Of a DNA stretch of 64,000 bases, positions 59,869 to 64,000 are shown piece after piece; the stretch's first letter is position 1, and every line of letters starts with the position of its first letter. The position numbers and the translations under genes were made by a program. The notes under the pieces are model-generated. The model did not search any database. It was not told the DNA's origin and worked only from the letters and a program-made list of their open reading frames with translations. This DNA comes from Mesoplasma tabanidae (lineage in GTDB: Bacteria > Bacillota_I > Bacilli_A > Mycoplasmatales > Mycoplasmataceae). The stretch is taken from contig NZ_CP024969.1 of assembly GCF_002804025.1 (NCBI RefSeq), positions 372,001-436,000 on the forward strand. Direction: 5' to 3'.

Positions 59869-59905
59869 AAAAAGACACAGTTATTTTACTAATTGTGTCT
59901 TTTTT
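59869..59905 (+). terminator. Terminator of the S1 gene
   Basis: AAAAAGACACA pairs with TGTGTCTTTTT. Confidence 0.8.
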
Positions 59906-60008: not shown

Positions 60009-60035
60009 AGTAAGCATATATTGCTTACTTTTTTT
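60009..60035 (+). terminator. Second hairpin with T-run
   Basis: AGTAAGC pairs with GCTTACT, then T6. Confidence 0.65.
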
Positions 60036-60065: not shown

Positions 60066-60116
60066 TAAGTGTTTTTCAACAAAATTATTGAAAGACTTGC
60101 TTTTTTTTTTTTTTTT
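60066..60116 (+). terminator. Third hairpin ending in T16
   Basis: AAGTGTTTTTCAA pairs imperfectly with TTGAAAGACTTG, followed by 16 T (60101-60116). Confidence 0.55.
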
Positions 60117-60198
60117 AGATAATTAACTCTAAGGTTTGAAAAATAAAAGTCAAAAGTCAAACCAGCAAAATATTAAAAATGATGTAGGAGAAAACAAA

Positions 60199-63087
60199 AT
60201 GGAAAAAAATATTTCAAAATCAAAGAGTGTTATGTTAAAAAATTTTAACAATAGCGCCGTGATAGTAGACCATTTTCATAAAAAATTTAAAGATATAAAT
60301 ATAGGACCATTTTCTTTTAATATAGAAAAAGGAAAAGTTACAGCATTGCTTGGAAGTAGTGGATCAGGTAAGAGTGTATTTTTAAACTCATTACTTGGTG
60401 CTACTTTGAACTATGATGGAAATATCTATATTAATGGTAAGGAACGCAAGAAAAGCAGTTCAATTGAAAATAACTCTAATGTAGGGTTTTACTCTCAAAT
60501 GGATTTCTCTTTATATTCAATTACAGCTTATGACTTTTTATACAATATGTGTAATGTTATGGGTTTAAATAAAAATTTAGTAAAGTCAAGAATTGAATAC
60601 TGATTAAAAAAGTTTGACTTATGAAATTCTAAGGATAAACCTTTAAATGCATTTTCATGAGGAATGAAAAATCGTATGAATTTAATTTTGTGTTTCATAA
60701 AAGAGCCAGAAATTCTTATTTTGGATGAACCAGGTGCAAATTTAGACTCTAAATGAAGAGGGCAGTCTTACAAAATACTAAAGGAGTTCAAAGAACAATT
60801 TAATAGCACAATTATATTAACAGTTCACAACATTGATGAAGTATATAATATAATTGAAAATTTTGTAATTCTAGAAAAAGGTAAACTATTATTCTCAGGA
60901 TCAAAAAATGAATTAAATTTATACAAGAAAATAAATGTTTCATTCGAGAAAGATGTTGTATTAGCAGAAGTTGAAAAGCTGTTAAATCAACATAATATTT
61001 TAACGTTTAATTTTGATTTAGTTACTAACTCGTTAGTTATTGGTTTAAAAGAACATCAAACATTTAATGATGCCTTAGCTATTCTAGAAAAGCATCATGT
61101 ACAACCAAAAGATGTAATAGCACAAGCTATTAATATGGATGCTATTTTAAAAGCTTTAGAAGATAAAGACAAACCACATAAACCAAAATATGAAGCGCTA
61201 AAAGAATATACAATTGATAGTTCAAATAATAAATCAGTTGATTTAGATAACGCAATGGACTTTTTAAGCAAAATAGAAGACAAATATAAAAATATTTTAA
61301 ATTTAAGTGAAGATGAAATTAAAGTTGGTTTATCAAATGATCATGTCTTAATAAGCGATGATTCAAGTACTTCAGCATCTGATAGTTATCAATCTTTAGT
61401 TTTAAGCGATACAATCTATGTTAGTGAAAAAGTCTTATCACCAGCTGAAATAAATACGATAAAAACTGATTTTTTTGATAAAGTACAAGAACTTAAAAAT
61501 TTAAAAACAGAAATAAATCAAATAATAGCTGAACAAAAAACTGAAATTGATTTAAATATCGATGATTTAAAAGATTACTTTGCAAAAGTTAAATTAGAGT
61601 CAGAAATAATTCATCAAGCAAAAAGAACATTTGAAGATGAAGCAGCTAATTTAAAAGTTCTTTTACAACAAACAGAAGCTGAAACTCAAAATTTAGAATT
61701 TAAAAAAACAGATTTACAAATTAAAATCGATGAATTAAAAGAACTACAAGATGAAATTATTTTAACTTCAGCTAATGAATATCAACAATTTGATTCAATA
61801 AAAACTGAATTTTCACTTAAGCTTGAAGATTTAAAAAAATATATTGAAAAAGTTAAGATTGAATCAGAAAATTCATTAACTTCTGAAATTGAATTAAAAA
61901 TGAATGAATTTAAAGAGTTCGAAAATCAATTCAAGGATTTAGTTGCTGTTCAAAAAGAAATTATTCAAGAGGAGATCAAAGACTTTAAGAGCTATTTAAC
62001 TCAAGTTCAAATTGAATCTGATGAAATTAATAATTCAAGAGATGTTTTAGATAAAGACTTAAGTGCGTTAAAACAAAGTAGAGAAGAATTCTTAGTTGAA
62101 ATTGAATTAGAACAAGAAGATATTGAAATTCAAAGACTTGATTTAAATTTAAAATTTGATGAATTGAAAAAATTACAAGCAGATATTGCTGTTGCAACAA
62201 TTAGTGAATATAAAGAAATTGATTCAATTAAAGCTGAATTCTCAAATAAACTTATAGATTTAAAATCTTATGTTGAAAGCATTAATGCAGAAACACAAAT
62301 TGTTCAACAATCAAAATCTGAATACTTGGAAAAAATTAAAGAATTTAAAGAATATCATGATGAATTTAATAAGACAGCTTTTGCAGAAAAAGAATCAATT
62401 AAAAATAGTATTTCAGAATTAAAAGAATTTATGCATCAAATTCAAATTGAATCAAGCGAAATTAATCAATCAAAAACTGAACTTGAAGAAGAAATAAAAA
62501 AATTGAAAGAAGCACAAAGCAATGTATTAGACAAAATTGAAATTGAAAATATTTCAACTCAATCAAGACGAAAAGAATTAGAAAGTCAATACAGTGAAAT
62601 CAATGCACTTCAAAGCAATATAACTTCAAAAGTTAATTTAATTAATGAAGGTTCATCAAGTATTAATGAATCTAATTTTGAAATTTTAAAATTGAAAGAA
62701 GAATTAGAAAAATTAAAATATCAAATGAGTGAACAACAAAATTTAAAGAGATATGCAAGTACACCACAAACATGAAATAATGGTTTTGATAATCTTAATA
62801 TGCAACAAGAAATGTGACAAAAACAAAGTGCAGCTTTATTTAAGGATCAAGAATTAGAAAAAATTAAATCGGATTTATACAAAGAAAAGAAATACTTTGA
62901 AGAATTAAGAAAAGAAATGATTTTTGAAAAAGAAATGAATCAAAAGTTAGCTAAATTTGATAATGAAATGAAACAACGTGAAAATGTTTTAGAACTTGAA
63001 AGAGTTAGACGTGAAATCCAAGAAGAAAAAAACAAATTAAACGAAGTATTGATGATGCAAAATTTATCAAGTAAATTCTTAAAATAA
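60199..63087 (+). CDS. ABC ATPase fused to a very long coiled-coil domain
   Basis: 962 residues from ATG 60199 (8 bases after TAGGAG); an upstream TTG at 60136 lacks a binding site. Residues about 20-235 are an ABC-2-type ATPase: Walker A LLGSSGSGKS (about 51-60), Q-loop GFYSQMD, signature FSWGMKNR (about 151), Walker B ILILDEPGANLD (about 172-183) and switch His in TVHNIDEV. A Ser/Asp-rich linker (about 300-420) follows, then about 540 residues of coiled coil. In the coil, units xELKxL...DLKxY...VxIES recur, starting near residues 428, 511, 568, 654 and 714, alternating about 57 and 85 residues. ABC exporter ATPases normally end near 300 residues; a tail like this suggests tethering to another complex or the cytoskeleton. 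A lipoprotein gene starts one base after its stop. No named family is claimed. Confidence 0.85.
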
Positions 63088-63088
63088 A

Positions 63089-64000
63089 ATGTTTAAAAAG
63101 ATACTATCATTAGGTTCTGCATTTATTGTAGGGTTTGCTTTAATAACTACTGGTTGTGGTCAAAAACCAAAAGAAAATAAACAAGAATATAAAGCAATAT
63201 ATGACTACTACATTCTTGGTGAATCTTTTAAGCAAGAAGTTGAAACAATATTTCATAATGCATTAGTTGAAAACCAAAATAAAATCATTTATATTGACCA
63301 AGTTATGCAACAAAGTGAAAATTTTGACTTTTTTACTCAGTTTAATTTACAAGAAATTAATCAACGCAAACAAAATCAAAATGTAACTTCTAATTATGAA
63401 CTTTTATCTAAAATAGAAAAAGATGCATTAACTAATGATTTAAATAAAATTACAAAAAATAGTAAACTAGATGAAACAATTTTAAATTCAATGAAACCGG
63501 AATTAAATTTTTATTCTATTATTTTGGATTTTAAAGAAGAAGATCAAAATTGATTTAAAGGATTAACTTATGATTTTAACAACATAGATTTTGGATACTT
63601 AAGTTTTGATAAAGAAAATAAAAATTATATTGCAAATGTTAATTTAGATTTAGTATTTACTTATCAATATATTGATATCAACAGCAATATAATTAATAAC
63701 AATTATCAAGAAGATATTGTTATAACAATTTCAAATCAAAATGACATAATTGAAAATTTAATGTTTGCAACTAATGAGTTAAGAGAAAATCTTATTAAAA
63801 ATAAATTTCAATGAGCATGATTTGATGCTTATGATCTCAGAATAAATGACTATGCTAGATTATTTAATTTAAAAAACAGTGATTTTGAAAATCTTTTTAG
63901 ATTTGATAAATTTGAAAAAAGCTTATTAAATTATATTTCTCAGCATAATACTAATTTAACTAAAACAACTCAAAATTATAATTTTGCTTTTAAAAATGAA
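63089..64000 (+). CDS. Lipoprotein, 3' end beyond window
   Basis: At least 304 residues. The signal peptide FKKILSLGSAFIVGFALIT ends in the lipobox TTGC (Cys23). The rest is hydrophilic, rich in Asn and aromatic residues (NFDFFTQFNLQEINQRK, WFKGLTYDFNNIDFGYL, FQWAWFDAYDLRINDYARL), with no known domain visible. It has no ribosome binding site of its own; ATG 63089 follows the stop codon of the ABC-coiled-coil gene by one base, so it depends on translational coupling. It is probably the surface component of that system, with a permease expected downstream. Confidence 0.75.

What the first reader, a model, noticed from the sequence alone, without database searches (positions are those of the whole stretch)
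60199..64000. ABC ATPase with a 540-residue coiled-coil tail, coupled to a lipoprotein
A complete ABC-2-type nucleotide-binding domain continues in one frame into a linker and a long periodic coiled coil. Repeating units in the coil (starts near residues 428, 511, 568, 654 and 714) alternate short and long, suggesting growth by duplication. The next gene is a lipoprotein started one base later without its own ribosome binding site, so the products are made in fixed ratio. A cytoplasmic stalk on an ABC ATPase could couple transport to a cytoskeleton, to cell shape or to a neighbouring complex. I know no described system with this plan.
Basis: partly seen in the sequence, partly recalled or inferred. 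Interest (0 to 1): 0.75.

Follow-up and report, generated by a model that had tools for sequence, protein, structure and literature searches.

The report
Transporter ATPase with long coiled-coil tail
In the Mesoplasma florum group of tiny wall-less bacteria, the motor protein of a surface-protein-linked membrane transporter has gained, apparently once in evolution, a long rod-like tail inside the cell that its relatives lack, while some relatives encode a separate rod protein in the same operon.

Summary
Window 60199-63087 (code 4) encodes 962 residues: a complete ABC ATPase domain, an ABCA/NosF-like C-terminal domain, a disordered linker and a 535-residue helical tail.

Past base 64000, one predicted transcript encodes the rest of lipoprotein A, a probable ABC-2-type permease with a ~370-residue extracellular region, two more lipoproteins, a small protein, a two-TM protein ending in an HU/IHF domain, and an HTH protein.

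The lipoprotein-permease-ATPase module is widespread in Mesoplasma/Spiroplasma relatives (up to 17 permease matches per genome), otherwise without this tail. Tailed ATPases form one clade (9 copies, 8 genomes; coil dN/dS about 0.1-0.26), so the tail was probably gained once. At six loci in four untailed genomes a separate coiled-coil protein is encoded in the module, with no detectable sequence homology to the tail. Spiroplasma modules have neither.

Most likely it is a transporter with a built-in cytoplasmic scaffold. Its substrate and the tail's partner are unknown. New variant of a known kind.

The parts
59869..59904 (+). terminator-like hairpin closing the upstream transcript (a second one at 60009-60029)
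   Evidence: L003 1869-1904 and 2009-2029; window = L003 + 58000
60096..60123 (+). putative promoter element: CTTGC, T16 tract, then GATAAT; the tract is conserved upstream of most related operons
   Evidence: inferred, no transcription data
60186..60190 (+). AGGAG ribosome binding site of the fused gene
60199..63087 (+). fused ABC ATPase-coil gene, 962 aa, code 4
   Evidence: nine intact copies in eight genomes
60262..60918 (+). ABC ATPase domain (residues 22-240), signature FSWGMKNR, catalytic E177 present
60919..61173 (+). C-terminal alpha/beta domain of the ATPase (residues 241-325), resembles the R-domain region of NosF/ABCA structures
61174..61479 (+). linker (residues 326-427), mostly predicted disordered, fastest-evolving part; helix begins near residue 415
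61480..61896 (+). coil repeat unit 1 (residues 428-566)
61897..62331 (+). coil repeat unit 2 (residues 567-711)
62332..62622 (+). coil repeat unit 3, partial (residues 712-808)
62800..63081 (+). conserved charged C-terminal helix (residues 868-961), found only in the tailed clade apart from one marginal match
63089..64000 (+). lipoprotein A (623 aa), 5' part; gene runs on past the window edge to the equivalent of 64960

Best explanation
This is the ATPase subunit of a transporter module particular to Mesoplasma/Spiroplasma-type Mollicutes: an ABC ATPase with an ABCA/NosF-like C-terminal domain, a probable ABC-2-type permease with six or more TM segments and a ~370-residue extracellular region before the last TM, and two or three large lipoproteins. 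In the M. florum clade the ATPase gained, by one fusion or extension, a 535-residue coiled-coil tail built from ~143-residue repeats. Proposed mechanism: ATP-driven closure of an ATPase dimer works through the permease on the outer-face lipoproteins (export, release or mechanical activation), while the two tails pair into a cytoplasmic rod of roughly 57 nm (385 residues at 0.1485 nm each) that scaffolds the machine or ties it to another cell component. SHOWN by sequence: domain order, repeats, helical periodicity, gene neighbourhood, single tailed clade, purifying selection. INFERRED: complex formation, direction of transport, pairing of tails, scaffold role.
For: ABC_tran E 2e-24; invariant Walker A, Q, E177, H210; nearest folds TM_1403, NosF of NosDFY, ABCA. 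Downstream permease and lipoproteins with no + strand terminator-like hairpin until 14135 of L003. Permease present in 36 of 60 family genomes, with the ATPase gene within a few genes of it in the modules read, except L071. Tailed ATPases form one clade, support 1.000, nested in untailed ones. Coil dN/dS 0.08-0.26, linker 0.16-0.42, ATPase 0.04-0.07. Separate coiled-coil genes in six untailed modules suggest that a coil in the module is useful whether fused or not.
Against: The permease matches no Pfam or NCBIfam ABC-2 model and its shallow-alignment model finds no fold. The separate coils are not detectably homologous to the tail. Spiroplasma modules and L069 work without any evident coil, and G012 lacks the module entirely. 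The AlphaFold model is a monomer of modest confidence, so pairing is untested.
Confidence: 0.55

Rival explanations
1. The tail is a regulatory or dimerisation device for the ATPase itself (for example an autoinhibitory or stabilising helix bundle), with no long-range scaffold role.
For: Coils often drive dimerisation, and the family's other members carry shorter variable extensions (419-539 aa proteins in G054, G055, G058). The fast-evolving disordered linker would allow fold-back.
Against: About 540 residues with repeat-number variation is far more than dimerisation needs; separate coil genes elsewhere argue for a distinct component.
Confidence: 0.2
2. The tail tethers the transporter to the nucleoid or chromosome, perhaps with the two-TM HU/IHF-domain protein of the same transcript.
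For: The HU-domain membrane protein (PF00216 E 6e-18) is found once for every tailed copy that can be read: own, G007 x2, G008, G009 x2, G011, and a copy lacking the HU domain in G059; it is absent or only distantly matched elsewhere.
Against: Co-occurrence may only reflect operon inheritance; the G059 copy lost its HU domain while keeping a tailed ATPase; no contact between the proteins is shown.
Confidence: 0.08
3. The tail links the transporter to a cytoskeleton or to cell shape.
For: Length and repetitive coil.
Against: No cytoskeletal gene in the module; G012 of the same genus lacks the module.
Confidence: 0.07
4. A tolerated extension without function on an ordinary transporter.
For: Repeat number and length vary (896-1024 aa), and the family works without a tail elsewhere.
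Against: Coil dN/dS 0.08-0.26 and a strongly conserved C-terminal helix in all nine copies.
Confidence: 0.1

Closest known systems
ABC-2-type exporters with NosF/ABCA-like ATPases (NosDFYL; ABCA; TM_1403; PmtCD)
   Same: ATPase fold with a C-terminal alpha/beta domain; M or L near the signature position as in many ABC-2 ATPases; paired with a membrane protein and a lipoprotein gene, as NosDFY is with NosL.
   Different: 535-residue coiled-coil tail; permease unmatched by any ABC-2 model; large Mollicutes-specific lipoproteins; no NosD-like partner found in the operon.
SMC / Rad50 ABC ATPases
   Same: ABC ATPase and long coiled coil in one chain.
   Different: There the coil is inserted between Walker A and signature/Walker B with a hinge or hook (established knowledge); here the ATPase domain is contiguous (residues 22-240) and the coil is purely C-terminal.
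Untailed lipoprotein-permease-ATPase cassettes of Spiroplasma and Mesoplasma seiffertii
   Same: Homologous ATPase (about 41-70% identity over the aligned region) and homologous permease in the same operon.
   Different: No fused tail; a separate coil gene in some, none in Spiroplasma modules read.
ABC-F proteins with a C-terminal coiled coil (such as Uup)
   Same: C-terminal coil on an ABC ATPase (from general knowledge, not tested here).
   Different: ABC-F proteins have two ABC domains and no permease; here there is one ABC domain and a permease gene in the operon.

Membership tests
ABC ATPase (Pfam ABC_tran) | family model match | tested here: met
   87 bits against cut-off 25, E 2e-24
ABC ATPase (Pfam ABC_tran) | Walker A, Q-loop, Walker B with catalytic Glu, H-loop | tested here: met
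   invariant across 12 relatives: GSSGSGKS 52-59, Q100, D176 E177, H210
ABC ATPase (Pfam ABC_tran) | canonical LSGGQ signature | tested here: not met
   FSWGM in the family; non-canonical signatures with M are common in ABC-2 ATPases by general knowledge, so this does not exclude membership
ABC-2-type transporter | ATPase of the NosF/ABCA/DrrA kind with a C-terminal regulatory-type domain | tested here: met
   drrA, GldA and others among NCBIfam hits below their cut-offs; Foldseek top hits TM_1403, PmtCD, NosF
ABC-2-type transporter | permease matches an ABC-2 membrane family model | tested here: not met
   no Pfam/NCBIfam match in any scanned member
ABC-2-type transporter | permease with about six TM segments, partner of the ATPase | tested here: inconclusive
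   hydropathy gives 6-8 TM segments, the last one after a ~370-residue hydrophilic region; structure model too weak
SMC/Rad50 | coil inserted inside the ATPase domain with hinge or hook | tested here: not met
   ATPase domain contiguous at residues 22-240, coil C-terminal
NosDFYL | NosD-type periplasmic partner and NosL-type lipoprotein | tested here: not met
   no Pfam/NCBIfam hit to such families among the operon proteins
ABC exporter or mechanotransmitter | transport or mechanical work shown | not testable with these tools
   needs experiment

The most novel reading that the evidence does not exclude
The tail is a cytoplasmic cable that physically joins a surface-lipoprotein transporter to the chromosome, working with the co-transcribed membrane-anchored HU/IHF-domain protein, so that surface remodelling and nucleoid position are linked in a near-minimal cell.
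Probability: 0.07. Interest if true: 0.85.

Novelty: new variant of a known kind. Interest (0 to 1): 0.5.

Why it matters
Few if any bacterial transporter ATPases are known to carry a cytoplasmic rod this long, and M. florum L1, which has it (G010, 793,224 bp, matches the published L1 size, PMC10884336), is a genetically tractable near-minimal model. The natural series of no coil, separate coil and fused coil in one transporter family makes it directly testable what a coil adds to an ABC machine. The module is also a widespread, uncharacterised surface system of insect- and plant-associated Mollicutes.

Tried and rejected
Homology between tail and separate coils: hhalign and hmmsearch both negative; coils are hard to compare, so common origin is unproven rather than excluded. 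Sequencing artefact or frame error: rejected by nine intact copies. Fold of the permease: no PDB match from a five-sequence alignment model, uninformative. Tail-end homologues on other proteins: only a marginal match in G037 (E 0.003). A duplicate of the fused gene in the own genome: none; the 29-bp match at G000:C1:75089 is a chance AT-rich match. Paper searches for a described coil-tailed ABC ATPase or this Mollicutes module found nothing relevant; the library is partial. Essentiality of the operon in M. florum could not be read (supplements not available).

Full report
What is there. The window lies in a Mesoplasma-type genome (846,907 bp; same-genus genome G011 is M. grammopterae by name, and G010 has the published size of M. 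florum L1, 793,224 bp, PMC10884336). Window 60199-63087 encodes 962 residues under code 4, with a good ribosome binding site. Residues 22-240 are a complete ABC ATPase, 241-325 an alpha/beta domain, about 326-414 disordered, and 415-961 helical in the AlphaFold model apart from short breaks. Foldseek places the ATPase part next to TM_1403, PmtCD, NosF and ABCA.

The tail. Hydrophobic residues follow a 3.55-residue period over 373 residues, with power 21.4 against a shuffle maximum of 9.1, and there is no Pro or Gly from 428 to 817. Self-comparison gives units starting at 428, 567 and 712 (offsets 139, 143-145, 284), scoring up to 179 against a null maximum of 110 that keeps the hydrophobic pattern. 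Orthologues gained or lost blocks of about 50-62 residues. The coil is under purifying selection (dN/dS 0.08-0.26), less strict than the ATPase (0.04-0.07), while the linker is loosest. The C-terminal helix is nearly invariant and essentially confined to this clade.

The operon. Beyond base 64000 (L003; window coordinate = L003 + 58000) follow lipoprotein A (623 aa), a 604-611 aa permease, lipoprotein B (665 aa, weakly homologous to A), lipoprotein C (530 aa), a 78-aa protein, a 361-aa protein with two TM segments and a C-terminal HU/IHF domain (PF00216 E 6e-18), and a 76-aa HTH protein, then guaA and guaB. Terminator-like hairpins flank this block and none lies inside on the + strand, so one transcript is predicted, not shown. 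Lipoprotein A lacks an obvious Shine-Dalgarno in all eight copies read, while the permease gene has AAAGGAGGT.

Relatives. The ATPase family and the permease family travel together across Mesoplasma, Spiroplasma and allies: permease in 36 of 60 family genomes, 17 matches in one Spiroplasma-type genome, and only weak matches outside the family among 298 genomes of the order. Modules were read in 21 regions and in named Spiroplasma ixodetis and M. seiffertii loci. The tail occurs only in six of seven genomes of the own genus and in G059 of another genus; these nine copies are one clade with support 1.000 nested in untailed proteins. A single gain is the simplest reading; whether G059 got it by descent or transfer is open.

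Split relatives. In G054, G055, G057 and G058, six modules contain a separate cytoplasmic protein of 298-776 aa rich in coil-like periodicity (z 2.4 to 6.2), directly after the ATPase gene at four loci. It is not detectably homologous to the tail. The tail may descend from such a neighbour or may be an independent solution. Either way a coil recurs as a component of this transporter, though Spiroplasma modules show none.

How it probably works. By analogy with ABC-2 exporters and NosDFY-type machines, ATP binding closes the ATPase dimer and moves the permease, whose extracellular region could act on the lipoproteins (inference). Two tails would pair into a rod of about 57 nm, roughly a tenth of the ~0.55 um cell diameter that follows from the published M. 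florum cell volume of 0.082-0.097 um3 (PMC7745072). The rod's partner is unknown. The HU-domain membrane protein is a candidate because it accompanies every readable tailed copy, but G059 has lost its HU domain.

Limits. No experiment supports transport, complex formation or tail pairing. The permease is called ABC-2-like from topology, operon position and an ABC-2-like motif (FEDKT..VSR), not from a family model. Kinship groups (g1, g12 and so on) are unnamed.

Noticed in passing
L003:12799-13884 (equivalent to window + 58000, beyond the edge): A two-TM protein with a C-terminal HU/IHF DNA-binding domain, one per readable tailed operon: a possible membrane anchor for DNA. The G059 copy lacks the HU domain.
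   Followed up: partly
60096-60123 and L099-L120: A CTTG-T16-17 tract just before a -10-like box upstream of this operon is conserved across species; 2-4 such tracts per genome in the Mesoplasma and G003 genomes that have them, several before lipoprotein, PTS-EIIA-like or surface genes; a candidate slippage-controlled promoter.
   Followed up: partly
L061:12525, L062:8978, L063:13403, L064:11112, L070:9571, L072:9392 (gene starts): Separate coil proteins share a ~50-residue N-terminal domain (FFIEK..NYFYIK...) that also seems, by eye, to begin a one-TM, large-ectodomain protein next to a Spiroplasma-type module.
   Followed up: no
L062:12501-12986, L075:7511-8002: A stand-alone EIIA-type PTS protein is encoded next to the second type of module, which could link it to sugar status (PF00358 E 2e-16 for the L062 protein).
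   Followed up: no
L136:5878-8390 (G007): A decayed extra copy of the operon: fused ATPase and permease remnants beside an intact lipoprotein B gene; G008 also has a permease remnant.
   Followed up: partly
L068 (G043:C1:226001-246000): Tandem near-identical lipoprotein-permease-ATPase cassettes in a Spiroplasma-type genome, 17 permease matches in that genome.
   Followed up: partly
L053:3-9104 (G010): The downstream part of the operon in the genome of M. florum L1 size is withheld (reads N), so its permease could not be checked.
   Followed up: no
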